Shown: piece by piece, positions 2,804 to 39,516 of the stretch
How positions within the stretch are numbered: the stretch's first letter is position 1
How the letters are laid out: each line of letters opens with the position of its first letter
Assembly: GCA_902609285.1 (NCBI GenBank)
Contig: CACLRL010000001.1
Location: 79,636-123,803, forward strand
Reading direction: 5' to 3'
DNA: 44,168 bases
Source of the DNA: an uncultured Candidatus Actinomarina sp.
GTDB taxonomy: Bacteria > Actinomycetota > Acidimicrobiia > Actinomarinales > Actinomarinaceae
Program-made: the position numbers and the translations under genes
Notes under the pieces: model-generated
The model's input: only the letters and a program-made list of their open reading frames with translations
Database searches by the model: none
What the model was told of the DNA's origin: nothing

Positions 2804-5800
2804 TTAAGGATTGCCAGGAGGAGTCTCTCCACCTGGAGGCGGTTCATTTCCACCTGGAGGCGGTTCATTTCCACCTGGAGGAGGTTCATTTCCACCTGGA
2901 GGAGGTTCATTTCCACCTGGAGGAGGGTTGTTACCTTCTCCCTCAGGAGGTGGTCCTTGACCTTCTTGTTCAGGTTGACATCCTGGAGCATAAGGATTGT
3001 TTGCACAATCTTCTTGATCTTGCTGTCCACCAGGAGGTATATCCCCACTAGGAGGATTATCTTCACCACCAGGAGGAGGGTTGTTACCTTCTCCCTCAGG
3101 AGGTGGCCCTTGACCTTCTTGTCCACCACTTTGAGGACAACCAGGTGCATATGGATTGTCATCACAATCTTGGTCTTGTATTACTCCATCTTGAGGAGGT
3201 GGAGGGGCAACCTGTGAACATGTAGGATCATCTGGATTTTCATCGCAATAGTTTCCTGCAAATTCGGTAAAATTATCTGATTGATTTTTAAACTCACCTG
3301 CTTTTTCAGCATCTCCCCAACCACCACCTGGTGCAGGTTGTGTCCCAGGGGCAAAACCTCCCTCAGGAGGCGGACCAAAAGCATTGCCTTCACCGGGCTC
3401 TCCACCTTCTATTGGTTGAGCATAACAGAGAGGATCTTGAGGATTGTCCTCACAAAGTGAACCTACATCTTCAGGATTAAATGCTTCAAATTCTTTTACG
3501 CCTTCTTCTCCAACTGCTAACAATCCTGATTCTGATGGATCAAAACCTTCTTGACATCCTGGTTCATTTTGATTTCCAGGAGCCGAGCAATCAAGAACAA
3601 AATAATCATCATGATTACCGTATCGCTGAGATGCTAAATCATCTGCTCCTTCAATGGAATTATAGAAAACTCCTTGCTGAGCTAAGTCAACATATGAATC
3701 ATCACTAAACATATTGCCTAGGAACGCACCTTTATCTAAATTACCTTCTCCGTAATAATCTCTAAAACATTCTGGGTGGTTAGGATCTTCTGTACAGAAA
3801 TTAGGCTTTTCACCAGCGCTTGCATTTGGATCTGGAGCCGCGTATTGAGCTAGCAACCCTCCTGTCAAAGGACCTTTCAGCCCTCCTTGTTGTCCAAAAC
3901 CTGAATCACACTCTGGTGCGTCAGGTGTTTGATCACAATATGCAGGTGCTACATATTCCCCTTCTGAGAAAACATCAGCTGGCCTATAATTATCTCCACA
4001 TTCAGTAGCTTCAGGATTTTCTTGACAGAATTCTTGTGGTGGACCAGTTAATTCTTGAGGGCCTCCATAAATATCAAACATATCATTTCGATCTAGCGCA
4101 AGCCCAGTAGCATTGCCAACAAACTCATGAAAGAAATCACCTTCACCTGCACACATTGGGTCATCCGGGTATTCTTCACAATTCACTGGTGCCCACTCGT
4201 CACCCAATACATCCTCGTCATAAACATGGAAAAACGTATAAACAGCTTGTGCATTACCTCCTACACATTCAGGATCTTCAGGATTATCTGCACAGAAAGA
4301 ATTTTCATTAGCACTTTTTCCAAAGAAAGCATTTCCGGGATCAATGCCTCCATCTTCACAATTCTCAGGACTAGCTTCACAATATGCACCACCTTCTTGA
4401 AAAGCATCTCCAACAAACTGTGGACCATCTGAACATTCTGGTAACCAAGTCTGCTCGTCACAATAACCTGGTTTAATGTCATTTGTTGTAAATGTATATT
4501 CAAATCCCATTCCCTGGACCATATCCTCAACAAAATGATTACCTGCAAATGCTTGAGCTAGAAATTCTGGAGGAGGTGCTCCAGCTGCACATTCAGGATC
4601 ATTAGGATTATCTGCGCAATAAGTACCTTCAACAAAATTATCTTGACCTGCGTTAACAAACATATTTGCAGCTGCCAGAGCCATAGCTGAAGCAACATCA
4701 CCTGTGTTTGCTAGCTCATTTACGGCATTTGTATCTGCTGAAATGAATTGCATCATTCCATGTTGTGCACGAAAGTTTCCATTTTCATTATGGTCAAAAC
4801 CTAAATTTTGAAATTTTTCATTTTCATGAACAGTTACAGCATCTTCAAACGTTCCAATGAATTCTGATAATGGAGGTAGTTCTTGAGATGGACCATCTTC
4901 TGGTGCTTCTTGCCAGTTTGCGGATATAAATTCCTCAACAACTTCATCTGGTACAGCTACTTCTTGTACTACTTCAGCAAGCACTTCTACAGAATTTGTT
5001 AGTTCATCCGGTGCTCCTGCGGCAACCAAAAGAGTTTGAGCCAAATCCATTCTCTGAGTATCACTTTCAGTAAAAACTGCATTTACTGCTACATCTGCTG
5101 TTAATTGTTCACTACCCTCAGCAAGACCTTCCTGTGTTTCAGCTTTGCACGTGTAGCTACATGCCCCTTCCATGTTTGAAACAAATTCATCAACAATTAG
5201 TGCAACAGTTGATGAGTCTTCGTCTGTCCAACCTGAACCCCCTGTTGTTGCACTTCCAAGTTCTGTTCCCGCAGTTTGAGAAACAGCTACTAAAACCGGT
5301 ACCCCTTCTTCGTTAGGAAGCAATTCACTAAACACAGCATCATCTGCTTCCTCCCCACCTTCTAAGACGGTACTTTTTGCTGAAAGACTTGTTACATCAT
5401 ATTCAAATACACCTTCGGTTCCATGAACAGAGAGCTCTGCAGTTGGAGTAACTATTTTTGCAAGAGATGCTGATAGCCCTTCACTTCTGATATCGTAAGC
5501 AATACTTCCAGAAATTACATCTACTGTTAAAACTCTTGCATTTTCCTCCTCATCATAATCAAAGCTTCTAATATTGATTACAGAATTTCCTCCCATCAAG
5601 AGAGCAGATCCGTCTTCAAAAGTCATTTGAGCCGTACCATTATCAGCTGTTCTTATTTTTACACCCATATCAAGTGGAACGATTTCACTAACTACTTCCC
5701 AGTCTTCAGAGGTGCTGGTAAGTATCCCTGTTGCACCAATTAATGGCTTTAATAAAATTGGAGGAACGACTAAATCTGCTTCGTTATACACTTCTCCGGA

Positions 5801-5968
5801 AGACGTTTCTACATCTGCAGCTGTAGTTGTTGTGGTTTCTTCAGTAGTTTCCACTGTTTCATTAGATGTGTCGTTTGAACCCCCACATGCAGAGAGAATT
5901 AAGAAGAGAATAATTAAAATAACAAAACTTTTTCTTTGTTTCATGTCTACAGTCCTAATCCTAGACAA
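2804..5968 (-). CDS. Large secreted lipoprotein with N-terminal FecR domain, multiple C-x(n)-P-x-C mini-motifs and a Pro/Gly-rich C-terminal tail
   Basis: 1054 aa. Lipobox 'LILSACGGSND'; FecR-like segment 'GVKIRTADNGTAQMTFEDGSALLMGGNSVINI...GTEGVFEYDV'; repeated motifs such as YCADNPNDPEC, FCADNPEDPEC, LCEDNPQDPLC and YCDENPDDPTC; tail (NEPPPGG)n. Confidence 0.85.
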   Translation of the reverse strand: MSRIRTVDMKQRKSFVILIILFLILSACGGSNDTSNETVETTEETTTTTAADVETSSGEVYNEADLVVPPILLKPLIGATGILTSTSEDWEVVSEIVPLDMGVKIRTADNGTAQMTFEDGSALLMGGNSVINIRSFDYDEEENARVLTVDVISGSIAYDIRSEGLSASLAKIVTPTAELSVHGTEGVFEYDVTSLSAKSTVLEGGEEADDAVFSELLPNEEGVPVLVAVSQTAGTELGSATTGGSGWTDEDSSTVALIVDEFVSNMEGACSYTCKAETQEGLAEGSEQLTADVAVNAVFTESDTQRMDLAQTLLVAAGAPDELTNSVEVLAEVVQEVAVPDEVVEEFISANWQEAPEDGPSQELPPLSEFIGTFEDAVTVHENEKFQNLGFDHNENGNFRAQHGMMQFISADTNAVNELANTGDVASAMALAAANMFVNAGQDNFVEGTYCADNPNDPECAAGAPPPEFLAQAFAGNHFVEDMVQGMGFEYTFTTNDIKPGYCDEQTWLPECSDGPQFVGDAFQEGGAYCEASPENCEDGGIDPGNAFFGKSANENSFCADNPEDPECVGGNAQAVYTFFHVYDEDVLGDEWAPVNCEEYPDDPMCAGEGDFFHEFVGNATGLALDRNDMFDIYGGPQELTGPPQEFCQENPEATECGDNYRPADVFSEGEYVAPAYCDQTPDAPECDSGFGQQGGLKGPLTGGLLAQYAAPDPNASAGEKPNFCTEDPNHPECFRDYYGEGNLDKGAFLGNMFSDDSYVDLAQQGVFYNSIEGADDLASQRYGNHDDYFVLDCSAPGNQNEPGCQEGFDPSESGLLAVGEEGVKEFEAFNPEDVGSLCEDNPQDPLCYAQPIEGGEPGEGNAFGPPPEGGFAPGTQPAPGGGWGDAEKAGEFKNQSDNFTEFAGNYCDENPDDPTCSQVAPPPPQDGVIQDQDCDDNPYAPGCPQSGGQEGQGPPPEGEGNNPPPGGEDNPPSGDIPPGGQQDQEDCANNPYAPGCQPEQEGQGPPPEGEGNNPPPGGNEPPPGGNEPPPGGNEPPPGGNEPPPGGETPPGNP
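2829..2930. repeat. 21-bp tandem repeat, about 4 full copies plus a partial (encodes PPPGGNE repeats on the minus strand)
   Basis: Units beginning CCACCTGGAGG at 2829, 2850, 2871, 2892 and 2913 (period 21), followed by [CA]GGTTCATTT. Confidence 0.9.
2927..3178. repeat. Imperfect ~100-bp intragenic duplication (offset about 152 bp)
   Basis: 'gttgttaccttctccctcaggaggtgg[t/c]ccttgaccttcttgt' occurs near 2928 and near 3080. Both are followed by related DC(D/A)(D/N)NPYAPGC-encoding sequence. Confidence 0.75.
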
Positions 5969-6053: not shown

Positions 6054-7346
6054 ATGAAAAACCCTAATATAACTGAATTATTGTCAAAATTAGTAGAAAT
6101 CCCCTCTATCAGCTCTCTTGATGAAAACCATAACGATGTTTTAGATTCAGCAAATTATATTGCTGACTTATTCAAGGGACTGGGCCTAAAATCTAAGGTC
6201 ACTTCAAGTAAAAATAGTAAACCTGCTGTACTTGCACAGACTGAACTAGACCCATCTAAAAAAACTGTTCTTCTTTATGCACATCATGATGTCCAACCAG
6301 TTGGTGATAGAAATAAATGGGCTACAGATCCGTTTAAACCAGAAATTATTGAAGGAAGACTTTTTGCAAGAGGATCAGGAGATAACAAAGCAGGAGTTGT
6401 AACTCATTATGAAGTGGTTAAAAATCTAATTGAAACTCTGCCTGTGAATATAAAAATTTTTATTGAAGGTGAGGAAGAAATCGGTTCACCATACATGACT
6501 GAATTTATTGAAGAAAACAGAGGAGATCTTGAAGCTGATGTAATTGTTATTGCAGATTCAGGAAATATTAAGTCAGGCGTTCCAACAATAACGACATCCT
6601 TAAGAGGACTAGTTGATGGTGTCATAGTTGTTGATCAACAAATGGAACCTGTACATTCTGGATTGGGTGGAGGCGTAGTTCCAGATGCATTTATGATATT
6701 AAGTCGCATAATAGCTTCTTTTCATAATGAAAAAGGAGAACTCCTTATAGAAGGACTTACTCCAACTGAACAAGATGTATTTGAACTATCTGATGAATTT
6801 GTAAAGAGTTCACTCTCTTCTAAGGGAGTTGAGCTTTTTGAAATGGATAGTTATTCAAAAAGATTATGGTTGGAACCTGCATTAAGCATACTGGCGATTG
6901 ATGCTCCTCCCGTAGCCGAATCTGTAAACTTACTTATTCCTAAAGCAAAAGCAAAAGTAAGCTTAAGGCTTCCTCCAACTGAAGATCCAGATCATGCAAT
7001 GAATATGCTTGAACAACATATAAAAGAAAATACTCCTTTTAATGCAAATGTTGAATTTATACCTGAAGCAAAAGGAAAAGGAATACTAGTTGATCCCAAA
7101 AATGAATTCAGTTCAAAACTTATAGAATCATTTAATAAACATTGGGAAAATGACGTTGCATATATGGGGGTTGGAGGGTCAATTCCTTTTGCAAATATCT
7201 TTATAAATGAGTTTCCAAATTCTGAGATAGTTTTAGTAGGTGCAGGCGATGAAGAAGGAAATGCTCATGCCCCTAATGAAAGCGTAAACCTTAGTGATAT
7301 CCAAAGACTTATTGATAGTCTTACAGATGCTCTTTCAAGTTATTAA
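6054..7346 (+). CDS. M20 family metallopeptidase/dipeptidase
   Basis: 430 aa. 'VLLYAHHDVQPVGDRNKW', 'LFARGSGDNKAGV', 'FIEGEEEIGSP' are hallmark M20 motifs. Confidence 0.93.
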   Translation: MKNPNITELLSKLVEIPSISSLDENHNDVLDSANYIADLFKGLGLKSKVTSSKNSKPAVLAQTELDPSKKTVLLYAHHDVQPVGDRNKWATDPFKPEIIEGRLFARGSGDNKAGVVTHYEVVKNLIETLPVNIKIFIEGEEEIGSPYMTEFIEENRGDLEADVIVIADSGNIKSGVPTITTSLRGLVDGVIVVDQQMEPVHSGLGGGVVPDAFMILSRIIASFHNEKGELLIEGLTPTEQDVFELSDEFVKSSLSSKGVELFEMDSYSKRLWLEPALSILAIDAPPVAESVNLLIPKAKAKVSLRLPPTEDPDHAMNMLEQHIKENTPFNANVEFIPEAKGKGILVDPKNEFSSKLIESFNKHWENDVAYMGVGGSIPFANIFINEFPNSEIVLVGAGDEEGNAHAPNESVNLSDIQRLIDSLTDALSSY

Positions 7347-7474: not shown

Positions 7475-8050
7475 ATGAAAGCATTTTTTACACAGCCTAT
7501 TGGGCAACTTGCAAGACAAAATGCTCTTGGATTTATTGGTTGTAATTTATATCTAATAGTTATAAATTTTGGATCATTTGATTCGGTAGACGCCGTTGAC
7601 AAAATATTTAATTTTGCTTGGGGGTTTACACTTTTAGCATTGATTATTGCAGGTTATAGCTTAGTAGAAGATCAGGTACCTGAATATTGGAGAATGGCAA
7701 CTGGAATTTTAGCTGCAGTCATTATTACTGGAACTCTTATTGAATTAGCGATACCAGAGTTTCAGGAAAATGGATTTGTTCCAATGTATTTTTTATGGGC
7801 ATTCAACTCATTAACTTATAACTTAACGAACAGGGGGACAGGAGTATTTCGACCAATCTATGAAAATCTAAGTATTCTTGGTTTCCTCTCAATACTCATT
7901 GGCACAGGAGCAAACATATTTTTCGACTACACACCACCTGAATCTATTCAACCTATTTTTGGGATTGGCTGGATTGCAATGGTTATTGGTTTAGGTTACG
8001 GAAGCTATGTTGCTTGGGGGGACAAGTTAGCCTCAAGTACAAATGAGTAA
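7475..8050 (+). CDS. Small polytopic membrane protein (paralogue of the next gene; 'VPEYWR' motif)
   Basis: 191 aa, several hydrophobic segments, SD-like AAGGAAGG upstream. Shares 'NFGSFDSVD..FNFAWGFTL...EDQVPEYWRMATGILAAVI' with the 8090 ORF. Confidence 0.8.
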   Translation: MKAFFTQPIGQLARQNALGFIGCNLYLIVINFGSFDSVDAVDKIFNFAWGFTLLALIIAGYSLVEDQVPEYWRMATGILAAVIITGTLIELAIPEFQENGFVPMYFLWAFNSLTYNLTNRGTGVFRPIYENLSILGFLSILIGTGANIFFDYTPPESIQPIFGIGWIAMVIGLGYGSYVAWGDKLASSTNE

Positions 8051-8089
8051 AAAGTTTAAAGTAAGAAAAATAGAAGAATAGGAGATAAA

Positions 8090-8620
8090 ATGAAAAAATT
8101 TTTTGTGCAAGATGTTAAAGAAGGATCACAACAAGCAGCTTATTTGTTTATAGTTATAAATGTTGTTTTTTTTGTTGGAGGAGTTGCTGAAATTGATTAT
8201 GGCAATTTTGATAATGTACTTCAACTATTTTGGACCATCTCGCTTGTGCAAATACTCTTAGGATTGAAGGACCTCCAAGGAGATACGGTTCCTGAAGATT
8301 GGAGACAAGGTTATACAATGATAGCCGCAGCAGTTGCTGTTGCATCTCTTTTAGGCATTAATGAAGATATAAATACCTCAGGAATTTTTACTTTATTCGC
8401 ATTTGTAATTTTGGGTCTGGGTGTAACCACAGAAGGTGTAATTGACAATATTTGGAGATATGCGGCGATTCTTGCAGGTTTGTTTGGAATTGTTGGAAGT
8501 GGAAGTGAATTTATTACAGGAACCAACATCATTGCGGATACTCCTCTTGGGTTCGTTGCTTTCTTAACATTTATTGCTGGTGTTGGAGTAGGACCCTTGC
8601 TTGCTTGGAATAAAAGATAG
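8090..8620 (+). CDS. Small polytopic membrane protein (paralogue of the 7475 gene; 'VPEDWR' motif)
   Basis: 176 aa, 'YGNFDNVLQLFWTISL...GDTVPEDWRQGYTMIAAAVAV'. SD 'ataggag' upstream. Confidence 0.8.
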   Translation: MKKFFVQDVKEGSQQAAYLFIVINVVFFVGGVAEIDYGNFDNVLQLFWTISLVQILLGLKDLQGDTVPEDWRQGYTMIAAAVAVASLLGINEDINTSGIFTLFAFVILGLGVTTEGVIDNIWRYAAILAGLFGIVGSGSEFITGTNIIADTPLGFVAFLTFIAGVGVGPLLAWNKR

Positions 8621-8667
8621 GGATTTGTAGCAAACTTAACTATCGCAAAAATTACGTTAGGAGAAAA

Positions 8668-9309
8668 ATGTATGTAAGACTTGGGTTAGCAAACCCTAAA
8701 GAAGGCATGACTGAAGATGCCCTGAACTATTTCAAAGATGTAGCAATTCCAGTTTACGATCAGGTAAGCGGAATACTATCAGCTGGAGCTTGTATAAACA
8801 ATGAAGGACAACTTATGGCTTGGACTATGTGGGCTAATCATGAGGCGAAGGAAGCTGCAATGGATGAATTTCAACAAAACCTTTCTGGTTTGGCAGACTT
8901 AATAACAGAACCACCAACAATTTTCGAAGGACCAATGATTGCCGCTCAACAGTATATTATGGTTCCAAAAGATGGAGGAGAATCTTTCTTCGCAAGATTT
9001 GTCATGGGAGGTGGCATGCAGGATGATAAAACATATGATGATGCTGGTGCTTTTATGACTAGCACTGTTTACCCAGCATATGAAAATGTCAATGGAATTT
9101 ATGCATCTGCTGCTTGCAAAGTAGATAATGACACGGGTTTTAGTTTTAACTTTTGGACTGATCATGAAGCCGCACATTCAGCATCTGATGTAATTACAGA
9201 AGTTGTAAAAGACGCAATTGAAAATTTAATTAAAGAAGCACCCCAAGAATTAACCGGAGAGTGTAATGTATGGAAAAATTACGTTGACTTTCCTGTAGGA
9301 AAATTATAA
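8668..9309 (+). CDS. Tandem ABM-like (dimeric alpha/beta barrel) two-domain protein
   Basis: 213 aa with an internally duplicated pattern: 'LMAWTMWANHEAKEAAMDEF' and 'FSFNFWTDHEAAHSASDVI'. C-terminal 'GECNVWKNYVDFPVGKL'. SD 'aggag'. Confidence 0.7.
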   Translation: MYVRLGLANPKEGMTEDALNYFKDVAIPVYDQVSGILSAGACINNEGQLMAWTMWANHEAKEAAMDEFQQNLSGLADLITEPPTIFEGPMIAAQQYIMVPKDGGESFFARFVMGGGMQDDKTYDDAGAFMTSTVYPAYENVNGIYASAACKVDNDTGFSFNFWTDHEAAHSASDVITEVVKDAIENLIKEAPQELTGECNVWKNYVDFPVGKL

Positions 9310-9327
9310 AAACAGAAAGGAGTATAA

Positions 9328-9981
9328 ATGTTATTTTTTAGATTAACACTTGTACCTATTCAAGAAGGAAAAATGGAAGATGCGATGTCATTCGCAGAAG
9401 AAAAAGTCGACGAATTTATAGGCATACCTGGATTATTGCAAGTTGCATTATGTGAAAATAGTGATGGTCAACTTATGTCTTGGTCAACCTGGTTGAGCGA
9501 AGATTCAATGAACGGATCAAGTGAACAATTAGCAGAAGCTCTTGGAGGTCTAAAAGACTTTGTCACGGGACCACCTGAGATTTCGTTTGGACCAATGACG
9601 GCTGGTCAGCAATACGTAAATATTATGAAAGGCGATAGAGAAGGGCAATCTTTTGTTGTTCGAATTGGATATGGATCAGAATATATTGAAGAAAAATATG
9701 ATGAAGGCATGGATTGGCTGCAAAATACTGTTTATGCAGGATATGAAGGAACCGAAGGTTTACTTGGCGCATTCGCAGTTGACGTTGGAGGAAAGTTCGT
9801 TACTTTAAGTAACTGGGACAGCCAAGAAGCACTTGATGCATCGTTAGAGTCATTTCAACAAATTATGGCTGATGCACAAAACTACATTAAAAGTCCTCCA
9901 ACAATCGTTACTGGCGAATGTAGTATTTGGAGAAATATGGCGAGTTTCCCTGCGGGAAAACTATCAGATTGGAGTAAATAA
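9328..9981 (+). CDS. Tandem ABM-like two-domain protein, paralogue
   Basis: 217 aa, 'LMSWSTWLSEDSMNGSSEQL', 'VTLSNWDSQEALDASLESF', C-terminal 'GECSIWRNMASFPAGKL'. SD 'aaaggag'. Confidence 0.7.
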   Translation: MLFFRLTLVPIQEGKMEDAMSFAEEKVDEFIGIPGLLQVALCENSDGQLMSWSTWLSEDSMNGSSEQLAEALGGLKDFVTGPPEISFGPMTAGQQYVNIMKGDREGQSFVVRIGYGSEYIEEKYDEGMDWLQNTVYAGYEGTEGLLGAFAVDVGGKFVTLSNWDSQEALDASLESFQQIMADAQNYIKSPPTIVTGECSIWRNMASFPAGKLSDWSK

Positions 9982-9985
9982 GAAA

Positions 9986-10600
9986 ATGATTACAGCAAAA
10001 GAAAGAGAATTAGGAACACGATTTACCTATATAAATATTGTGGCAACATTAATTAACTTTGTATTTTTAGCATTTATTATTGGTCCTGATGAAATAGGAT
10101 ATAACGAAAGCTTTGGAGCACTGCTTGGTTTAGTGGGCTTAGCTCAAGGGGTAACATTTCTTGGAATTATAAGGCTTTCAGGAAAATTATTTAATTCTGA
10201 TGAAAATCCACTTCTAGCTGGTGCTGTAGCTGTAACTTATGGAGTAGCGATAGTAGGCTTAATGTTTGCTTTAACTCCAACCTTTATAGCTAATGGATTT
10301 AGTGTTCGTGGAATATCAGCAGACACCGTAAATGATTTAAGTTTTTATTTAAACTTCACACAATTTTTGTTTGCAGCATTTTGGATTGGACAGGTAGTTA
10401 GAGCAGATGATGGACAATTGCCTTCATGGGGCAAAACTGTTGGAAATGCTCAAGCATATGGATCAGCTGCTGTATTGTTCGCTTTTTATTTTGGTGTTAT
10501 TGGTCAGTCTTTGTTTGTTCCGGCATTAGCATTGTTTGGTATTGTCCTATACCCTGCTTTTATATATGGAATGTCACAAGCTTTTTCGAATACTAATTAA
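9986..10600 (+). CDS. Polytopic membrane protein (paralogue of the 38185-38802 gene)
   Basis: Start assigned to ATG 9986 rather than 9872, which overlaps the upstream CDS. MITAKERELGTRF...IIGPDEIGYNESFGALLGLVG...LPSWGKTVGNAQAY...ILYPAFIYGMSQAFSNTN. Confidence 0.8.
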   Translation: MITAKERELGTRFTYINIVATLINFVFLAFIIGPDEIGYNESFGALLGLVGLAQGVTFLGIIRLSGKLFNSDENPLLAGAVAVTYGVAIVGLMFALTPTFIANGFSVRGISADTVNDLSFYLNFTQFLFAAFWIGQVVRADDGQLPSWGKTVGNAQAYGSAAVLFAFYFGVIGQSLFVPALALFGIVLYPAFIYGMSQAFSNTN

Positions 10601-10603
10601 AAA

Positions 10604-11248
10604 ATGTATGCTGTAGCCATTACTATTTTATTTAAAGAGGGAAAGCTTGATGAGCTCAAAGACTTTTTTGAAACCTCCGGGTTCCCGGCTTTGGAACCAC
10701 TTATAGGTGACATGTATTCTATTGCATTCTTTAACCCAAAAGATAATGTAAATCTTGGTATTGCATTTATGAAAGATAAAGAGACTGCAGATAAATTTGC
10801 AGAAATTAGAAACGAAAACTTAATGCAAATTCAAGATATTCTTGATAGTCTTCCCAGAGTCTATGAAGGTGAATTGATTACCGGTAAGACTTTAAAAGAT
10901 TCATTAATTGAAGACTCAAAAGAGACAATGTTTTTAGCATTTGCAAAATTAGATGTCAAAGATGCTGATGAGTACATGAATCTTCAAAAGGAAATCTACT
11001 TACCAAAACTTGAAGAGGATGATGGTATTATCTCTTACGGAGCTTTCAAATCTGATGAAAACAATTTAGTGTTATTTGAATTTTGGACTTCTCATGACGC
11101 AAAGCATGATTTTGACGAAAAACTTAATGCTGATGGAAATGTGTACGAACAATTTATGCCATTGATGAATGGGTTTGATGATTATTATGGAAATCCTTAC
11201 GCAATAAAGCAATTTGTTGACTTTAAGTCCGGTGAATCAATAAATTAA
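10604..11248 (+). CDS. Tandem ABM-like two-domain protein, divergent paralogue
   Basis: 214 aa, 'LVLFEFWTSHDAKHDFDEKL' and the shared mid-protein '.VYEGELITGKT'. C-terminal 'IKQFVDFKSGES'. Confidence 0.65.
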   Translation: MYAVAITILFKEGKLDELKDFFETSGFPALEPLIGDMYSIAFFNPKDNVNLGIAFMKDKETADKFAEIRNENLMQIQDILDSLPRVYEGELITGKTLKDSLIEDSKETMFLAFAKLDVKDADEYMNLQKEIYLPKLEEDDGIISYGAFKSDENNLVLFEFWTSHDAKHDFDEKLNADGNVYEQFMPLMNGFDDYYGNPYAIKQFVDFKSGESIN

Positions 11249-11270
11249 ATAGTCTTTTAAAATCAATTCT

Positions 11271-12386
11271 ATGTTCGACGAAAGAAGACACGACATAGAT
11301 GCACTTAGATCTATTGCTCTTTTTCTCTTAATTTTTTATCATTTGGCTGTATCTTTCACATCTGTCGCTAAGTGGATCCTTTTTGTTCCGAACAATAAGC
11401 CAATAGATAATATATGGAGTTTGCTTAGCATATTCAATATATGGAGGATCCCGCTACTTTTTATAATTGCTGGTATTGCATTAAGATTTTCCTACCAAAA
11501 CAGAGGTGTTGGTAAACTTTTTAAAGAAAGATTTAAAAGATTAGGAATTCCTTACCTCTTTGGAGTAGTTACATTTGTTCCTTTATATATAATAATTTCT
11601 GCTCAATTCATTTATGGAGACATGAGCTTAGATGACAACATAGGGGTGTTGATCACTTCCATATTTACTGGGGGACATTTATGGTTTTTGATAAATATAT
11701 TAATTTATTGTTTACTTTTTATTCCAATAATTGGTTTCATATCAAACAAAAAAAGAGGATATAAATTTGTTGATTCAATTTTGAAAATACGAGGGGGTGT
11801 TCTCTTATTTTCAATTCCAATAATTTTAGAAGGATACCTTTTAGATCTTACAGCTTATAAAGAAGATATAGGTTATGGCAATAGTTATTCAGAATACTAT
11901 GGAACAGACCATGGCCTATTACTTGGTTTCATATGGTTTCTTATTGGAATAGTTCTGACTTCTCAAGGTGATACTTTTTGGGAATACAACATAAAAAATA
12001 TAAACACACATGCACTTATTGGTGTACCACTTCTTATTAATAGGTTTGTAAACGAGTTTGAGGTTGCAAATACGTTGATAGCTTTCGAATCATTTAATTT
12101 TATATTTTTAATTTTTGGGATTGGAGCAAAATATTTAAACAAAGATTCTTCTCAATTGCAATATTACAAACAGGCGGTATTTCCTGTTTATATAGTCCAC
12201 ATGCCAGTGCAAATGGGTATTATGTATCTTTTCTCAGATTTAAATATCCCCTTTTTAATAAAATTTCCTTTGGTGTTATTTTTAATCTGCTTCGTAAGCC
12301 TCACAATTTACCATGCTGTCAAAAATTTCAGACTTCTTCGACCACTGTTTGGATTAACAAACAAAAAAAATAATGAATCTAAATAA
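11271..12386 (+). CDS. Acyltransferase family 3 membrane protein
   Basis: 371 aa, 'RRHDIDALRSIALFLLIFYHLAVSF' plus many TM segments. Confidence 0.88.
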   Translation: MFDERRHDIDALRSIALFLLIFYHLAVSFTSVAKWILFVPNNKPIDNIWSLLSIFNIWRIPLLFIIAGIALRFSYQNRGVGKLFKERFKRLGIPYLFGVVTFVPLYIIISAQFIYGDMSLDDNIGVLITSIFTGGHLWFLINILIYCLLFIPIIGFISNKKRGYKFVDSILKIRGGVLLFSIPIILEGYLLDLTAYKEDIGYGNSYSEYYGTDHGLLLGFIWFLIGIVLTSQGDTFWEYNIKNINTHALIGVPLLINRFVNEFEVANTLIAFESFNFIFLIFGIGAKYLNKDSSQLQYYKQAVFPVYIVHMPVQMGIMYLFSDLNIPFLIKFPLVLFLICFVSLTIYHAVKNFRLLRPLFGLTNKKNNESK

Positions 12387-12501
12387 AGTACCTTACAGAC
12401 TAATTTTTATTCTGATATTTATATTTTTTCTAGTATTTTCTGATTCTTATATTGCAAAAAGACTGGTTCAATTACCTTCACTTTTATTAAACTATTTTTA
12501 A
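12373..12501 (+). CDS. Putative 42-aa single-TM small protein overlapping the acyltransferase 3' end
   Basis: ATG 12373 to TAA 12501: MNLNKVPYRLIFILIFIFFLVFSDSYIAKRLVQLPSLLLNYF. Lies between two collinear genes. Confidence 0.4.
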   Translation: MNLNKVPYRLIFILIFIFFLVFSDSYIAKRLVQLPSLLLNYF

Positions 12502-12503
12502 TT

Positions 12504-12875
12504 ATGGAACTATTAGATTTTGCTGATCATGAATACATAAATCTAGTTACCTATAAAAAAGACAATACATCAGTAAAAACTCCTGTATGGGTTGCTGAAT
12601 ATGATAATTACCTAGTAATCACATCCAGTAAATCGGCAGGTAAAGTAAAAAGAATTAAAAATAATGGCAAAGCAACTATTTATATCACAGATCAAATAGG
12701 AAGTAGCACTTTATCAGAACCAGTTAATGTAAAAGCTTCATTAATAGAAGATGAGAAAACTAAACAGGCAGCATTAAATACTATAATTAAAAAGTATGGT
12801 TCAATGTCAAAGATGTTTATACGGGGCTCAAACAAAAACAGATCAATTATTAGAATTGATGAGATAGTTAGTTAA
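12504..12875 (+). CDS. PPOX-class (pyridoxamine 5'-phosphate oxidase-like, probably F420-dependent, Rv2061-type) protein
   Basis: 123 aa, 'YINLVTYKKDNTSVKTPVWVAEYDNYLVITSSKSAGKVKRIKNNGKATIYITD'. Confidence 0.75.
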   Translation: MELLDFADHEYINLVTYKKDNTSVKTPVWVAEYDNYLVITSSKSAGKVKRIKNNGKATIYITDQIGSSTLSEPVNVKASLIEDEKTKQAALNTIIKKYGSMSKMFIRGSNKNRSIIRIDEIVS

Positions 12876-13368
12876 TCTCAGAAAACCATTTATGGGTTCC
12901 AAAATGATTTCTTGGAACCGGACTATTGTTGATTAAGAAATACTCAATACCTCCAAGCACAGAATCTAAATAGTTACTTAATTGAGGATTTATTTGAAAT
13001 ACAAACGGTATCACGTACAGTGGACCAGGAAAATTTTTTAGAGGATATGTGTTTACTTGAATTGATAATTCAGATTCTTCATCATTACCAAACAATCTCC
13101 ATCGAACCTTAGATTTTCTTCCATTTGCCGTACCAATTATTAAATCATATCCGTTTTCATCCCAGTGTGTAAATTCTCTTTCGAAGGTCAATCCGCTTAA
13201 ATATTCCAATGTATCTTTAGAACCGACACCCGGCCAAGAGATAACATTATTAACTTTACAAAAGGGATGGGTTTCATTTAGATAATTTGGAGTAGTAATT
13301 ACGTCCCAAACCTCATCCTTTGAAAAGTTCATTTTCTTACTTCTTTTTACAGATAAAATTTTATTCAT
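12868..13368 (-). CDS. SRPBCC/polyketide-cyclase-like family protein
   Basis: 166 aa, N-terminal 'SKDEVWDVITTPNYLNETHPFCKVNNVISWPGVGSKDTLEYLSGLTFEREFTHWDENGYDLII'. Confidence 0.6.
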   Translation of the reverse strand: MNKILSVKRSKKMNFSKDEVWDVITTPNYLNETHPFCKVNNVISWPGVGSKDTLEYLSGLTFEREFTHWDENGYDLIIGTANGRKSKVRWRLFGNDEESELSIQVNTYPLKNFPGPLYVIPFVFQINPQLSNYLDSVLGGIEYFLINNSPVPRNHFGTHKWFSEIN

Positions 13369-21569: not shown

Positions 21570-22337
21570 ATGAATATTGGCGCACATATACCTTCAAAAA
21601 ATGCAATTGATGAAATTTCTTATAGAAAAGGAGAAACTTTTCAGATATTTATATCAAGTCCACAGATGTGGAAAAGTCCAAAACCTAGAGAAGATATCGA
21701 GATTTTGCAAGATTTCAAAGGAAACATATATGTCCATGCACCATATCTCATAAACGTAGCCACTCCCAACAATAAAGTTCGTCATCCAAGTAGAAAGCTA
21801 TTAAAAGACACATGCAAGGTGGCCGCTACTTTTGGAGCGAAAGGCGTTATTGTTCATGGTGGTTCGGTTGGAGAAGGTGGTGATATAGGACAAGGATATG
21901 AAAACTGGGGTAAAGCAATAAAAGAAGTAGAAGACATAGGTGTAAAGGTTCTTGTAGAGAACACAGCTGGAGGAAAAAATTCAGTGGCAAGATATATGGA
22001 CTCAATTGAAAGACTTTGGGAAGTAATTGGTCATTTAAATGTTGGATTATGTCTAGATACATGCCATACCTGGGCAGGAGGTATTCCTACTATTGAAGCA
22101 GTAAAAGGATTTAAAAAGCTTGTAAAAAAAATCGATTTGATTCATTTTAATGATTCAAAAGATGGATTTGAGAGCAGTAGAGACAGACACGAAAATCTTG
22201 GTAAAGGACAAATCCCAAAAGAGGAATTGGAATACGTAATTAAAAATGCAAAAACTGATATTATTGTTGAGACTCCAAACGGTCCTGATGCTCAAAAAAA
22301 AGATATTGCATGGATAAAAAGACGTTTAAAGAAATGA
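21570..22337 (+). CDS. nfo: Endonuclease IV (AP endonuclease)
   Basis: MNIGAHIPSKNAIDE..., 'GVIVHGGSVGEG', 'VLVENTAGGKNS', 'VGLCLDTCHTWAGG', 'IHFNDSKDGFESSRDRHENLGKGQI'. Start 21570 preferred over 21561 (TATAAT at 21557-21562). Confidence 0.93.
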   Translation: MNIGAHIPSKNAIDEISYRKGETFQIFISSPQMWKSPKPREDIEILQDFKGNIYVHAPYLINVATPNNKVRHPSRKLLKDTCKVAATFGAKGVIVHGGSVGEGGDIGQGYENWGKAIKEVEDIGVKVLVENTAGGKNSVARYMDSIERLWEVIGHLNVGLCLDTCHTWAGGIPTIEAVKGFKKLVKKIDLIHFNDSKDGFESSRDRHENLGKGQIPKEELEYVIKNAKTDIIVETPNGPDAQKKDIAWIKRRLKK

Positions 22338-23602
22338 ATTATTTACCAGAAAATCTAAAGTTTGAGGAAGGAGTAGCCTTTATAAATGACTTTTCCTTAT
22401 TAGATATTTCATCAGAATATGGAACTCCTTTGTATGTATACGATTGGGAAAACATAAAAAATAATATTTCAGAATTTTCTACTTCTTTTGGTGATGAGAC
22501 GTTGTATAGATATGCTGCCAAGGCTTTTATTTGTAAAAAACTAGTCACATTATTAAATGAAAATAATTGGGGTGTCGACGTTGTCTCAGGAGGTGAAATG
22601 GCTACTGTATTATCTGCACTTGATACATTGGAAAACACACTTTTTAACGGAACATATAAAACTAAAGAAGAAGTAGATTATTTCATTTCAAATAGTGGTG
22701 GGCATATATCAATTGATAACTTAAATGAGATTCCTTTACTTCAAGATATTGCATCGAAAAACAAAAGAAAGCAACCTGTAATTCTAAGAATTAATTTAGA
22801 TTTAGGTGCCGAAACCCATCCAATGGTATTGACAACAGGATATGATCAACAGTTTGGTCTTTCAATTGACGCTGCAGAAACTGCATTAAAAGAAGTTTAC
22901 AACGCTGACTCACTTCTCTTCTCTGGAGTTCACGTTCATATTGGTAGTCAAATTAAAGATCCTGAAAGATTTAGAAAAGCTATGGAGGAATGTTCATCGT
23001 TTTTAGAAAAAAATAAAGCTAGCGTCGAAAGAGAGATTGTTTTTGATGCTGGGGGTGGGTTTTTCTCTCCCTATGAAGGTGATGAAGATGGGCAGGGCTT
23101 AGAGGTTTATGCTGATTCAATTAGATCTGGCATTGAGGAGAATTGGGACACAGACTATAAAATAATGATTGAACCTGGAAGAGCAGTTGTAAATAATTCT
23201 GGAATAATTCTTTACACAGCTGGTGCTATAAAAGAAGACAGAGGAGAGAAACCCTACATATTGGTTGATGGAGGTATGTCAGACAATCCAAGACCAGCTT
23301 TATATGGTAGTGAACACAAGCTATTTAATATATCAGAAAACAAAAAAGAGGAAGAAAAAATTTTTGCAGTATCTGGAAGACATTGCGAATCAGGAGACCT
23401 TTTAGTTGAAGAAGCAAGTCTTCCAACAGACACAAATCCAGGTGATATATTAATGTCAACATCTACCGGAGCTTACACATTTGCTATGGCCAGTAATTAT
23501 AATCGGGTTCCAAAGGCTAAAGTCATTGGTATATCAAATAATGAGCTTTTCGACTTAGTTAAAAGACAATCTTTTGAAGACACTCTTGCACAAGATACTT
23601 AA
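22334..23602 (+). CDS. lysA: Diaminopimelate decarboxylase
   Basis: 'YRYAAKAFICKKLV', 'GVDVVSGGEMATVL', 'HVHIGSQI', 'IEPGRAVVNNSG', 'VSGRHCESGDLL'. ATGA overlap with nfo. Confidence 0.93.
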   Translation: MNYLPENLKFEEGVAFINDFSLLDISSEYGTPLYVYDWENIKNNISEFSTSFGDETLYRYAAKAFICKKLVTLLNENNWGVDVVSGGEMATVLSALDTLENTLFNGTYKTKEEVDYFISNSGGHISIDNLNEIPLLQDIASKNKRKQPVILRINLDLGAETHPMVLTTGYDQQFGLSIDAAETALKEVYNADSLLFSGVHVHIGSQIKDPERFRKAMEECSSFLEKNKASVEREIVFDAGGGFFSPYEGDEDGQGLEVYADSIRSGIEENWDTDYKIMIEPGRAVVNNSGIILYTAGAIKEDRGEKPYILVDGGMSDNPRPALYGSEHKLFNISENKKEEEKIFAVSGRHCESGDLLVEEASLPTDTNPGDILMSTSTGAYTFAMASNYNRVPKAKVIGISNNELFDLVKRQSFEDTLAQDT

Positions 23603-24591
23603 TTCTTTATCAGACCTCGAGCAATAAAGAAATTAATTGTATCAGTAATTGTTTCAATAAAAGGTCTATTTTTGTGACCAAGTTCATTTTTGGCGAGTGT
23701 GCAAGGTATTAATTTGTGCGCAGTTTTTATTGTATGAATAGTGTCAATCGTCATAAGTCTTGGTTTCTTTGTAAAGCTTGACTTTACTATTTCGAATGGA
23801 ACATTGAAATACATTGAAGATATCGGCAAAGCAGCAAACAAGGTTCTTCTGTCTAATAATCCACCAATCATTTTTGCAATCTCCGGAAACATTAAAAACT
23901 CCCCACCGACGAGATAATTTTGACCATTAACTCCTTTTATTGAACAATTAATTGCAGTTTTTGATAAATCTCTAACATCTACATAGTTGTATCCAAAAGT
24001 TATGTTCAAAAGTCTCTTTTGGTTTGCAATATCGATCATCGATTGACAATTTAGCCCAGGTTTAAAATCATTGGGACCCATTATTGATGTTGGATGAATA
24101 ATGCTTGCATCTAGATAATTTTTTGTAAAATCCAAAACGATTCTTTGACCGTCTGCCTTAGAAAGATCATATGGAATTGACTTAGGATCAGATACAAGAT
24201 TCCTAGATTCATATAAGGGTTCATCCATTGGTTCTCTTTGAAATGCATCAATAGAAGAAAAATGAATTAATTTTTTTACATTTGCATCCACACATGCTTC
24301 ACACACATTTTTTGTTCCTTCAACATTTATTTTTCTTATTTGATTCTTATATCTTTTATCAAGACTTATAAAAGCAGCTGTATGAAAAACTATCTCAACA
24401 TCTTTAAAAGCTGGCTTCAGAGAATCTTTATCTGTAATATCAGCCTCGACCAATTCAATATCTAAATTTTCAAAGGCCCGATAATCTCTATCAAAATCAA
24501 TGCATCGAACTTCATAACCCTGTTCAAGTAGTTCTCTTGTAAGATTTGCACCAACATGTCCAGAACCACCAGTTATTAATGCACGAGTCAT
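23599..24591 (-). CDS. NAD-dependent epimerase/3-beta-HSD-like SDR
   Basis: 330 aa, 'ALITGGSGHVGANLTRELLEQGYEVRCID'. Confidence 0.9.
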   Translation of the reverse strand: MTRALITGGSGHVGANLTRELLEQGYEVRCIDFDRDYRAFENLDIELVEADITDKDSLKPAFKDVEIVFHTAAFISLDKRYKNQIRKINVEGTKNVCEACVDANVKKLIHFSSIDAFQREPMDEPLYESRNLVSDPKSIPYDLSKADGQRIVLDFTKNYLDASIIHPTSIMGPNDFKPGLNCQSMIDIANQKRLLNITFGYNYVDVRDLSKTAINCSIKGVNGQNYLVGGEFLMFPEIAKMIGGLLDRRTLFAALPISSMYFNVPFEIVKSSFTKKPRLMTIDTIHTIKTAHKLIPCTLAKNELGHKNRPFIETITDTINFFIARGLIKN

Positions 24592-25187: not shown

Positions 25188-26363
25188 ATGAAAAAATTTA
25201 TAATTTTTATATTATTTTTATCTTTCTGTGGAGGAAACTCAGATTCGCAGCAAACCTCAGAACAATCAGAAAGCAATGAAGCTATACAGCAATCAGAAAG
25301 CAATGAAGCTACACAAAATGAAGAAGAAATAATAGATCATATGACTTTAGTTGACTACCCAGCAAAACTATATTTTGCAGGTGATATCCCAACCGAGGTA
25401 CATGGTCGAGCAGAGTTTGCCTTTTCAATAATTCAAGAAAAGCTTGGAAAATATCCAGTTGAAGTTTACTTTGTAGGAACTGATGAAAACGAAAAAGACA
25501 ATCTATCTAATCTTTTTTGTACTAATCGAGAAAAAGCAGGAAATTTTGACCCAAATGACCTTCGTCTAAATTTTCGAGATTTTGACGATTGTATGAACTT
25601 TATCGATGAAAGATATTTTTCAGAGTATCTTAGAAGTGGTCTTGAAACTGAACAAAGAGGATTTCAAGCCAGTGGTAACAAAGGTCATAATGGTCAAGCA
25701 CACCAGAGATATCACTTACTTGTTTGGTCAAAACCAATTGGGTTCGAAGTAGAAAATGGTGAGGGATACCAGATAGAACTTAGAGGGGTATTCCATGAAT
25801 ATTGGCATGTATTTCAAATTGCTCATATGGATTTTTATGATTGTTCTGATAAAGATGTTCGATCAACATGCGAATACAATTTTGATCCACCTGACTATCT
25901 TATTGGGGGTACGTGGCTCCAAGAAGGAACGGCAGTATTTAAAGAAATAACGATTTTACAAGAGCAGATTAAAATAGGAAATCTTAAAAATATTCAAATA
26001 GACATACTTCAAGAATTTAATAATCAATATTTTGATGGACAAAGAGTAATGGAGCAGTGTCCCGGAATGTCAATAAGAGATATAACCCATAGTGATCCAT
26101 GCAGACGCGCTGTTTATGGATGGGGGGCTTGGGCAGCTGCTTATCTAATTCATAAAGTAAATGATCCTTATATTTTTGAAAATGTTTATTATCCAGAATT
26201 AAAAAAATTAGGCGATCCAGAACTTGTATTTGCTAATACATTTGGCATGACTAGAGATGAATTTTTTGCTGAGTTTGATTCATGGATCTATCTTTCGGAG
26301 GATGAAAGAAAAATTGTAATTCCTACTGTGGAAGAAAATACAGGTAGGCTGTATTACCCTTAA
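25188..26363 (+). CDS. Lipoprotein with HExxH (peptidase-MA-like) motif
   Basis: 391 aa. Lipobox 'LFLSFCGGNSD', 'GVFHEYWHVFQIAH', 'TWLQEGTAVFKE', C-terminal 'YGWGAWAAAYLIHKVND'. TATAAT ends 6 nt before the ATG. Confidence 0.75.
   Translation: MKKFIIFILFLSFCGGNSDSQQTSEQSESNEAIQQSESNEATQNEEEIIDHMTLVDYPAKLYFAGDIPTEVHGRAEFAFSIIQEKLGKYPVEVYFVGTDENEKDNLSNLFCTNREKAGNFDPNDLRLNFRDFDDCMNFIDERYFSEYLRSGLETEQRGFQASGNKGHNGQAHQRYHLLVWSKPIGFEVENGEGYQIELRGVFHEYWHVFQIAHMDFYDCSDKDVRSTCEYNFDPPDYLIGGTWLQEGTAVFKEITILQEQIKIGNLKNIQIDILQEFNNQYFDGQRVMEQCPGMSIRDITHSDPCRRAVYGWGAWAAAYLIHKVNDPYIFENVYYPELKKLGDPELVFANTFGMTRDEFFAEFDSWIYLSEDERKIVIPTVEENTGRLYYP
25263..25311 (+). repeat. 27-bp-period repeat, 2 copies, in the lipoprotein N-terminal linker
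   Basis: CAATCAGAAAGCAATGAAGCTA at 25263 and 25290. Confidence 0.85.
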
Positions 26364-26366
26364 AAC

Positions 26367-27641: not shown

Positions 27642-27679
27642 AATATATTTGCTTAGAATATTTTAATTTTAATCAATTT

Positions 27680-28345
27680 GTGAAAGACATAAGCATAACT
27701 GAAAATCATCCTGTAAAAAAAAGGTTTTTATTAGGACCTTTAGGAAGGTTAATTTTAAAAGTAATTAATTGGGATATTGTTGGTGATCTTCCAGACAACA
27801 AAAAAATAATTATTGCCTCGGCGCCACACTCATCTTCTTTTGATAGTATTTACGCATTTTTTGTTTGCTTGGCATCTGATCTAAAGTTCTACTTTTTAGG
27901 GTCTATATCTATGTTTACAAGAATTGTTGTTCAAATCCCATTTAAAAAGAATCCAGATAAATTAGGAATTCCACATCCTTTTGGCCTAATACAGAAAAAA
28001 ATTATGGTAAATTTTGGTGGTATACCTGTCTGGAGAACAAAATCTACAGGAGTAACTCAACAAGTGATTGAGGAATTAAAGACAAAAGATAAATTCATTT
28101 TATATTTAACCGTTGAAGGTTTAATGCATACGAACAAAACAATTAAAAGTGGTTTTTATTATATTGGCAAAGAGTTAGATGCAATTGTTGTTCCAACAAA
28201 AATTGACTACAAAAATAGAAGATTTGAACTTATGGAAGAATATAATCTCACAGACTCGTTAGAAAATGACAAAAATGCATTGATGGAAATATATCATATG
28301 GTTGAAGGTAGAAATAAAACATTTTACAAACCAGAGAGTAACTAA
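27680..28345 (+). CDS. PlsC-like acyltransferase, divergent
   Basis: GTG start. HX4D 'SAPHSSSFDSIYAF', 'FGGIPVWRTKSTG'. Related to the 16659-17327 product. Confidence 0.7.
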   Translation: MKDISITENHPVKKRFLLGPLGRLILKVINWDIVGDLPDNKKIIIASAPHSSSFDSIYAFFVCLASDLKFYFLGSISMFTRIVVQIPFKKNPDKLGIPHPFGLIQKKIMVNFGGIPVWRTKSTGVTQQVIEELKTKDKFILYLTVEGLMHTNKTIKSGFYYIGKELDAIVVPTKIDYKNRRFELMEEYNLTDSLENDKNALMEIYHMVEGRNKTFYKPESN

Positions 28346-28346
28346 A

Positions 28347-28484
28347 TTGTTAGTCATTTTTCTAGTAATTATTGCTTCTATTTTTTTGATAGGCAATTTC
28401 CCCAATCTTTCGATTTTTATTGGTATTATTGGTGTAGTTTTAGGAGTTAATTGGTTAATAAAAAACAGCAAATATTACGAATAA
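28347..28484 (+). CDS. Putative 45-aa hydrophobic small protein
   Basis: TTG 28347: MLVIFLVIIASIFLIGNFPNLSIFIGIIGVVLGVNWLIKNSKYYE. Starts right after the acyltransferase stop. Confidence 0.4.
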   Translation: MLVIFLVIIASIFLIGNFPNLSIFIGIIGVVLGVNWLIKNSKYYE

Positions 28485-38184: not shown

Positions 38185-38802
38185 TTAATTATTTGTTGTA
38201 GTAAAGGCTACGCTTATTCCAAATATAAAGACAGGAAATAAAATCACTCCGCCTAATATAAAAATTGGAACGGCTGCACCAGTAGGTACTAGTCCAAACA
38301 AATTTCCTAAGCTAACTCCAATAACTAGATAAGCAGCTGCTTGGCCAGAAATCTTTCCCCATGAGGGGACTAGGCTATTTTCATCAGCACTCAATAGACA
38401 TAATGCCCAGATGCCAAACAAAATAAATGTCCCTAGTTGTCCTACATTTGCTATTTCGGATACTTGATTTGGATTTAAAACAGTCTCAAACACATTATTT
38501 GCGTTAGCTGTTGGTGCTAATGAACCTGTTAATTGAACAACTGCAGCTACAAATGTTATTGCACTCACAATTCTAAAATAAGGATTATTATCACCGAATA
38601 GTTTTTGAGTCAAAGAAATTGTAAATAATAATGCAAAGCTTTGAACAAAGCCAACGATATTAAGAATCCCTCCAAATTGCTCGTTATAGCCAACTTGATC
38701 AGGTCCAACAAGTAACGCAATTATTGCAAAAGAAACGATAGTTCCTAAAGCAGCAATTCTTGCCATTAAACTTCCAAGTTGAGCTTCTTTTGTTGTTAAC
38801 AA
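38185..38802 (-). CDS. Polytopic membrane protein (paralogue of the 9986-10600 gene)
   Basis: TTG start at 38802 behind GGAGGAA. MLTTKEAQLGS...LLVGPDQVGYNEQFGGILNIVGFVQ...LVPSWGKISGQAAAY...ILFPVFIFGISVAFTTTNN. Confidence 0.78.
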   Translation of the reverse strand: MLTTKEAQLGSLMARIAALGTIVSFAIIALLVGPDQVGYNEQFGGILNIVGFVQSFALLFTISLTQKLFGDNNPYFRIVSAITFVAAVVQLTGSLAPTANANNVFETVLNPNQVSEIANVGQLGTFILFGIWALCLLSADENSLVPSWGKISGQAAAYLVIGVSLGNLFGLVPTGAAVPIFILGGVILFPVFIFGISVAFTTTNN

Positions 38803-38836
38803 AATTCCTCCTAAATATTTGCTTTTTTTATTGTAC

Positions 38837-38866
38837 AAAAAAAAGAGCCCACAAGGGGGCTCTTTT
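38837..38866 (-). terminator. Strong intrinsic terminator between the ABM-like gene and the membrane gene (minus strand)
   Basis: Minus strand reads AAAAGAGCCC-CCTTGT-GGGCTCTTTTTTTT: 10-bp stem with a T8 tract. Confidence 0.85.
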
Positions 38867-38880
38867 CAGTTAATAATGAT

Positions 38881-39516
38881 TTAATTTGGGCTTTCACCCT
38901 CGTTGAAATCAATAGATGAAGTAAATGCATAAACCGGTCCCATATACGCTATTGTACTTCCATCAAACAAATCAGATTCTGATTCACTATCTAAAGCTGT
39001 TTGTAATTTTTCTACAGCTTTATCCATATCTTCTTGACTATCCCAAAAATTCCAACTTATTGCACTATTTCCATCAAAGATTGCACCAGTCAATTGAAGA
39101 CCATCTGATTCTTCATAAATTGGTTCAACTTTTTCTTTGAGAAAGTTAAGAACAGCATCTGTATCCTCAGCAACACCTACAACTATTCTCATATAGCTAG
39201 GTTTTGTTTCACCAACAGCAATTGTTTGATACATTTTGCCAAATACTGCCTCACCTTCATAAATGACAGGTGGAGCTGACATTAGAGGAGCAGCCTCAGC
39301 AAGTGCTGACTGAATTTTTTCAGCAGCAGCTTCGCTAGCTTCTTTGTTTTCCCATGCAGCCATATTTACTCCAGAAGTATCTCCAGTAATAGCAGCTGTC
39401 AAAGACAGAAGTCCAGGTGTCCCTGAAAATTCAGGCATAACCTTTTCTTTAACATAGGAAATAGCTTCATCCTTTTTTTCTTCCTGAAAAGCAGGAATTG
39501 TTATTCTAAAATACAT
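38881..39516 (-). CDS. Tandem ABM-like two-domain protein (paralogue of the 8668/9328/10604 products)
   Basis: 211 aa, 'MYFRITIPAFQEEKKDEAISY', 'VNMAAWENKEASEAAAEKI', 'AISWNFWDSQEDMDKAVEKL', 'FTSSIDFNEGESPN'. Confidence 0.7.
   Translation of the reverse strand: MYFRITIPAFQEEKKDEAISYVKEKVMPEFSGTPGLLSLTAAITGDTSGVNMAAWENKEASEAAAEKIQSALAEAAPLMSAPPVIYEGEAVFGKMYQTIAVGETKPSYMRIVVGVAEDTDAVLNFLKEKVEPIYEESDGLQLTGAIFDGNSAISWNFWDSQEDMDKAVEKLQTALDSESESDLFDGSTIAYMGPVYAFTSSIDFNEGESPN

What the first reader, a model, noticed from the sequence alone, without database searches (positions are those of the whole stretch)
7475..11248. Six-gene cluster of tandem-ABM-like proteins alternating with small polytopic membrane proteins: candidate undescribed system
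Order is TM, TM, ABM2, ABM2, TM, ABM2, all co-directional, mostly short gaps and good SD sequences. The soluble proteins (213, 217, 214 aa) each contain two copies of an ABM/dimeric-alpha-beta-barrel-like pattern ending in W-x(2)-x-[ED]-[AS] style helices (TMWANHEAKEA, FNFWTDHEAAHS, LSNWDSQEALDA, FEFWTSHDAKHD). They share a mid-protein '[FE]GxxxxxxQY' region and a C-terminal 'xxFxxGxx' tail. The first two membrane proteins are paralogues with VPE[YD]WR motifs. Obvious partner genes for a known pathway are absent. Co-expansion of soluble and membrane partners suggests a membrane-associated complex binding a small hydrophobic or redox ligand, but function is inference.
Basis: partly seen in the sequence, partly recalled or inferred. 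Interest (0 to 1): 0.75.

Follow-up and report, generated by a model that had tools for sequence, protein, structure and literature searches.

The report
Shuffling cassette of barrel–membrane protein pairs
A tiny-genomed marine bacterium (Candidatus Actinomarina) and its close relatives carry an undescribed gene array that pairs soluble two-barrel-domain proteins with small six-helix membrane proteins, and single genes of this array are swapped between strains like cassettes, which suggests a membrane-linked function under strong selection.

Summary
Window 7475-11248 encodes TM1, TM2, ABM1, ABM2, TM3, ABM3, all intact; a second pair, ABM4/TM4, lies at 39516-38185 on the minus strand. The ABM proteins are tandem ABM-fold proteins (AlphaFold pLDDT 93.5; PDB match E 1e-10). 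The TM proteins have six helices (pLDDT 90.4), no family, and no significant fold match. The host is Candidatus Actinomarina: 33 of 42 genomes of the genus carry ABM homologues, and the TM-ABM pairing was found in no other genus searched. 54 of 57 ABM genes share a locus and strand with TM genes. The main site is syntenic but its content is mosaic: against genome G017 the 44-kb window has median identity 96%, yet TM3, TM2, TM1 and TM4 are the four lowest genes (37, 39, 70, 76%), and the TM3 swap begins and ends at gene boundaries. All genes are under purifying selection (dN/dS 0.05-0.11). Biochemical function is not shown. I favour a membrane-docked module for a small lipophilic, probably redox, ligand, with exchangeable membrane parts; rivals are surface/defence variation and loosely linked oxygenases.

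The parts
7475..8050 (+). TM1, 191 aa membrane protein of the TM1/TM2 clade (VPEYWR)
   Evidence: alignment A4; maps
8090..8620 (+). TM2, 176 aa, paralogue of TM1 (VPEDWR)
8668..9309 (+). ABM1, 213 aa, tandem ABM-fold protein
   Evidence: AlphaFold model pLDDT 93.5; Foldseek best 3f44/3mcs
9328..9981 (+). ABM2, 217 aa, 33% identical to ABM1
9986..10600 (+). TM3, 204 aa, six-helix membrane protein; the gene swapped at its boundaries in G017
   Evidence: model pLDDT 90.4; no PDB match E<=0.001
10604..11248 (+). ABM3, 214 aa, tandem ABM-fold protein
38881..39516 (-). ABM4, 211 aa, tandem ABM-fold protein at the second site
38830..38863 (-). terminator-like stem and T run between ABM4 and TM4
   Evidence: read directly
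38185..38802 (-). TM4, 205 aa, relative of TM3; TTG start after AGGAGG
6054..7346 (+). M20-family peptidase: conserved upstream border of the site, not part of the module
11271..12386 (+). acyltransferase-3 family protein: downstream neighbour present in some genomes
12504..12875 (+). PPOX/F420-type small protein: conserved downstream border of the site

Best explanation
It is a lineage-specific, membrane-associated two-part module. The soluble part is a cytosolic pseudo-dimer of two ABM/Dabb domains (no signal peptide seen), which forms a ligand-binding barrel. The membrane part is a small six-helix protein, probably with both ends inside, that docks the soluble part at the cytosolic face and delivers, shields or selects a small lipophilic compound, most likely a redox-active one such as a quinone, isoprenoid or aromatic. 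The basic unit is one TM plus one ABM gene; most strains carry several. Within the array single genes, TM genes above all, are exchanged between strains by recombination at gene boundaries, so strains differ in membrane specificity while the soluble core changes less. Shown: folds, genus-wide conservation, co-occurrence, mosaicism, purifying selection. Inferred: physical interaction, topology, ligand, chemistry.
For: Tandem ABM fold at high confidence, matching the solved tandem 'putative monooxygenases' 3f44/3mcs with TM-score 0.71-0.74. Six-helix TM model. The TM1/2 and TM3/4 clades are related (hhalign probability 85%, E 6e-6). 54 of 57 ABM genes have a TM gene on the same strand in the locus, 49 within 150 bases. 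In 22 of 22 arrays with both borders the first gene is TM, and in 21 of 22 the last is ABM; the smallest arrays are TM+ABM (G025, G027); a second site has the same pairing. Some arrays add short proteins with weak Dabb-clan similarity (NIPSNAP E 0.0013; DUF1428 E 0.016). dN/dS 0.05-0.11. Gene-boundary swaps. Flavin/F420-type enzymes border the site: LLM TIGR03858 above its cut-off in other genomes, PPOX downstream.
Against: No ligand, catalytic residue or complex was tested. Apart from one Trp and one Glu, the invariant ABM columns look structural (G, L, P). The flavin-type neighbours may be unrelated border genes. At two second-site loci ABM4 stands without TM4 (L044/L087 and L061). Several incomplete same-genus genomes lack the genes. 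The ACYL and LLM border genes also come and go.
Confidence: 0.4

Rival explanations
1. Surface or defence variation: the TM proteins are exposed to phage, competitors or toxins, and the cassette swapping reflects escape; the ABM proteins are sensors or effectors of that system.
For: TM genes are among the most often replaced genes in the syntenic 44 kb. TM1 is 97% identical to a distant lineage whose flanking M20 is 65% identical (dS 0.33 vs 1.52). A glycotype island of this order also varies by small cassettes (PMC7771536).
Against: No PADLOC model matches any of the eight proteins. Predicted outer loops are not the most variable part of the TM3 family: mean entropy of outer loops is 1.38, 1.90 and 0.85 bits against 1.35-1.95 for helices. 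Low dN/dS within alleles. Presence is genus-wide rather than sporadic.
Confidence: 0.2
2. The ABM genes are ordinary oxygenases of an unknown small-molecule pathway, and the membrane genes are unrelated neighbours kept together by genome streamlining.
For: The genome is highly streamlined with short intergenic gaps (PMC7771536). Single-domain ABM relatives in other Acidimicrobiia stand alone without such TM genes.
Against: Co-occurrence at two separate sites and across dozens of rearranged arrays, with the pairing restricted to the same genus.
Confidence: 0.25
3. The TM proteins are substrate-binding S-components of ECF vitamin transporters (small, six helices, interchangeable) and the ABM proteins process the vitamin.
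For: Size and helix number fit; an EcfT (PF02361) gene is present elsewhere in the genome.
Against: Foldseek of a 90-pLDDT model finds no S-component among the listed matches and nothing at E<=0.001 in the PDB; no Pfam S-component family hit; no ATPase gene within either array.
Confidence: 0.04

Closest known systems
Tandem ABM-fold 'putative monooxygenases' 3f44 (Lactobacillus acidophilus) and 3mcs (Fusobacterium nucleatum)
   Same: Two ABM-like domains in one chain of about 210-218 residues; TM-score 0.71-0.74
   Different: About 10% identity; whether these have a membrane partner was not examined here
Pfam ABM family PF03992 (includes ActVA-Orf6, IsdG and YgiN type proteins, from general knowledge)
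   Same: Sequence similarity in 22 of 36 members and the domain fold
   Different: Window members fall below the gathering cut-off; tandem duplication; regular membrane partner; no conserved His as in IsdG
DUF998 / TMEM45A membrane folds
   Same: Weak structural resemblance of TM3 (DUF998 phage protein prob 0.94, TM-score 0.43-0.47, E 0.26; TMEM45A prob 0.82)
   Different: Not significant by E-value; no sequence relation found
Flexible genomic island fGI1 (glycotype) of Candidatus Actinomarinales (PMC7771536)
   Same: Fixed location, content varying by small cassettes
   Different: That island is 43-79 kb of polysaccharide genes; this is a 2-9 gene array. The paper's main text does not mention monooxygenases

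Membership tests
ABM (PF03992) / dimeric alpha-beta barrel fold | beta-alpha-beta-beta-alpha-beta ferredoxin-like domain pairing into a barrel | tested here: met
   AlphaFold secondary structure of ABM1 shows two such repeats, pLDDT 93.5; Foldseek matches to tandem ABM structures
ABM (PF03992) / dimeric alpha-beta barrel fold | score above Pfam gathering cut-off | tested here: not met
   Window proteins score 13.0-22.6 bits against 23.1; best E in the wider family 1e-7, bit score not shown there
ABM (PF03992) / dimeric alpha-beta barrel fold | oxygenase activity | not testable with these tools
   needs biochemistry
IsdG-type heme oxygenase | conserved Asn-Trp-His catalytic triad (from general knowledge) | tested here: not met
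   Only the Trp (W163 of ABM1) is invariant among 36 homologues; no invariant Asn or His
ECF S-component | S-component fold | tested here: not met
   No PDB match at E<=0.001
ECF S-component | use of a shared EcfT module | tested here: inconclusive
   EcfT exists in the genome but not at these loci
Known anti-phage defence systems | match to a PADLOC-DB model | tested here: not met
   no match for eight proteins at E<=1
TspO/MBR (PF03073) | match above cut-off | tested here: not met
   TM1 11.5 bits against 24

The most novel reading that the evidence does not exclude
An undescribed class of modular membrane system in which an orphan family of six-helix membrane proteins and cytosolic tandem-Dabb proteins form interchangeable pairs, diversified by single-gene cassette exchange in one of the most streamlined free-living lineages.
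Probability: 0.5. Interest if true: 0.75.

Novelty: categorically new. Interest (0 to 1): 0.6.

Why it matters
Actinomarinales genomes are about 1.1 Mb with very few paralogues (29-48 in the genomes tabulated), and only one order-wide flexible island was reported (PMC7771536). A lineage that sheds almost everything keeps eight paralogous genes here and swaps them gene by gene, so the locus probably matters for fitness in the surface ocean. Natural swaps, such as G017 TM3 against window TM3 between nearly identical ABM neighbours, make its specificity directly testable. The TM family is an orphan membrane family with a confident predicted structure.

Tried and rejected
Known families for the TM proteins: Pfam, NCBIfam, PADLOC, PDB by sequence and by fold, and the viral fold library gave nothing significant. 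Phage origin: no phage record matches ABM1; two scans of viral contigs returned no answer from the machine, so viral contigs remain untested. TM genes outside the genus: one weak hit among 156 non-genus genomes of the class sample (E 6e-4), none beyond the own genome in 398 of the phylum. Tandem ABM outside the genus: four genomes of one actinobacterial genus; the three loci read show no TM-family neighbour. Single-domain ABM relatives in other Acidimicrobiia: no such neighbours. ECF S-component idea: rejected by fold search. Empty-site test in genomes lacking the genes: most also lack the M20 and PPOX border genes, so the test was uninformative. The designed-TPR and katanin PDB hits are short helix matches, not relatives. 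Paper searches on such gene pairs found nothing.

Full report
What is there. The six genes exist as described. TM3 starts at 9986, five bases after the ABM2 stop; the longer frame from 9872 overlaps ABM2 and is not needed. The run TM1-TM2-ABM1-ABM2-TM3-ABM3 has gaps of 39, 47, 18, 4 and 3 bases and is followed 22 bases on by an acyltransferase-3 gene. ABM4 and TM4 lie between PanB and MsrA.

Whose genome. Close homologues named in the genome collection are almost all Candidatus Actinomarina / OCS155 single-cell genomes and MAGs. The genome held is 928 kb in 37 contigs, 79% complete.

The soluble proteins. Single window proteins hit Pfam ABM (PF03992) just below the cut-off, but 22 of 36 family members hit it at E<0.1, best 1e-7, and 10 hit DUF1428. 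AlphaFold with the 36-row alignment gives pLDDT 93.5 and pTM 0.88, with two beta-alpha-beta-beta-alpha-beta repeats. The best solved matches are the tandem ABM proteins 3f44 and 3mcs (E 1e-10 to 8e-10, TM-score 0.71-0.74). Invariant columns are G35, L72, P83, G88, E139, G143, W163 and G197. The Trp is the usual Trp of the ABM pattern (general knowledge); no His or Asn is invariant, so an IsdG-type triad is not present.

The membrane proteins. Two clades (TM1/TM2 and TM3/TM4) are joined by profile comparison (probability 85%, E 6e-6 over 169 columns). TM3 is modelled as six helices at pLDDT 90.4. Charges at the ends suggest N-in/C-in (my reading of the sequence). Nothing in the PDB or the viral library matches at E<=0.001, nor by sequence. 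The faint resemblances are DUF998 (prob 0.94, E 0.26) and TMEM45A (prob 0.82, E 0.57).

Distribution. In the class sample 33 of 42 genomes of the genus, own genome included, have ABM homologues. TM3/TM4 relatives occur in 34 of them and TM1/TM2 relatives in 30. Outside the genus, class members have only single-domain ABM proteins, and the ten such loci read stand without these TM genes. TM3/TM4 homologues are absent from 398 sampled genomes of the phylum apart from the own genome. Genomes without hits are mostly incomplete. Two of them (G013, G022) still have a TM1-like gene on a short contig, so absence is not proved.

Linkage. Of 57 ABM genes in the genus loci, 49 have a TM gene within 150 bases on the same strand and 54 have one in the locus. 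Of the other three, one is at a contig edge and two (L044, L061) are second-site ABM genes without TM. In 22 arrays with both borders visible, all begin with a TM gene and 21 end with an ABM gene. The smallest array is TM+ABM. Additional members include a 180-aa membrane ORF and short soluble ORFs of 107-120 aa, two of which show weak similarity to NIPSNAP and DUF1428, so the pairing theme extends beyond the two main families.

Mosaicism. The site is fixed: M20 peptidase, sometimes an LLM luciferase-like monooxygenase (TIGR03858, above its cut-off), then the array, sometimes the acyltransferase, then the PPOX gene. The array content differs even between genomes whose M20 proteins are 93-99% identical. 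Between the window and G017 the DNA is about 95% identical over 8619-10004 and 10603-12900, but between these the TM3 gene is replaced by a paralogue of 37% identity; the break lies at the gene boundaries. Across the syntenic 44 kb the median protein identity to G017 is 96%, and the four lowest of 41 matched genes are TM3, TM2, TM1 and TM4. TM1 instead is 97% identical (dS 0.33) to TM1 of G009, whose M20 is 65% identical (dS 1.52): one gene appears to have moved between distant lineages. In G104 and G012 ABM1 has no close counterpart, so ABM genes are lost or replaced too. These comparisons cover the syntenic region only, not the whole genome, and LysA, a neighbouring SDR gene and MetB are also recombined (79-83%), so recombination is not confined to the array. 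Replacement by deep paralogues, rather than by diverged alleles, is what marks the array. For G104 and G012 the rank test for TM genes alone is not significant (p 0.25 and 0.07), while G017, G006 and G011 give p 0.0007, 0.007 and 0.014.

Selection. Within orthologue pairs dN/dS is 0.05-0.11: these are working proteins, not decaying copies.

Explanation. I take the array to be a membrane-associated module of exchangeable pairs. Fold, conservation, linkage, mosaicism and selection are shown. Docking of ABM on the cytosolic face of TM, a lipophilic ligand, and redox chemistry are inferred from the ABM fold class and from the flavin/F420-type border genes, and are weaker. The main rivals are surface/defence variation and coincidental linkage. 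The outer loops of TM3 relatives are not more variable than the helices, and no PADLOC model matches, which counts against but does not exclude the first. Repetition at two sites and through dozens of rearrangements counts against the second.

Literature. The genome paper of the order (PMC7771536) reports few paralogues and a single order-wide flexible island, for envelope polysaccharides; a term search of its main text finds no monooxygenase. Its supplementary tables were not read, and few other papers were available, so prior mention cannot be excluded. The label 'categorically new' applies to the pairing as a system; the ABM half is a member of a known fold.

Noticed in passing
window 2804-5968 (-): 1054-aa putative secreted protein with a FecR domain followed by many short repeats of the form C-x-x-N-P-x-x-P-x-C and a Gly/Pro-rich tail; not found in the fetched G017 region.
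   Followed up: partly
window 25188-29542: Three putative lipoproteins with HExxH motifs (HEYWH, HEMAH, HEYFH), interrupted by an acyltransferase-like gene (27680-28345).
   Followed up: no
window 22310-24591 and 33110-34297: LysA, an SDR gene and a MetB-like gene are only 79-83% identical to G017 while neighbours are about 96%: separate recombination events.
   Followed up: partly
L067 (BOWN01000001.1): A contig labelled Cryomorphaceae carries the Actinomarina M20-LLM-TM-ABM array; probably a misnamed or mixed MAG.
   Followed up: partly
L112 452-1483: LLM-class luciferase-like monooxygenase (TIGR03858) sits between M20 and the array in many relatives but is missing at this place in the window.
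   Followed up: partly
L135 3879-4412, L136: Solitary TM1-like genes away from ABM genes in G020 and G008; in G020 next to a cytochrome b561-like gene (by eye).
   Followed up: partly
L132-L134: Tandem ABM genes of another actinobacterial genus (5.1-5.6 Mb genomes), two adjacent copies, without TM partners.
   Followed up: partly
L077 2358-2714: Cupin-like 118-aa gene between the array and the acyltransferase in some relatives (by eye).
   Followed up: no
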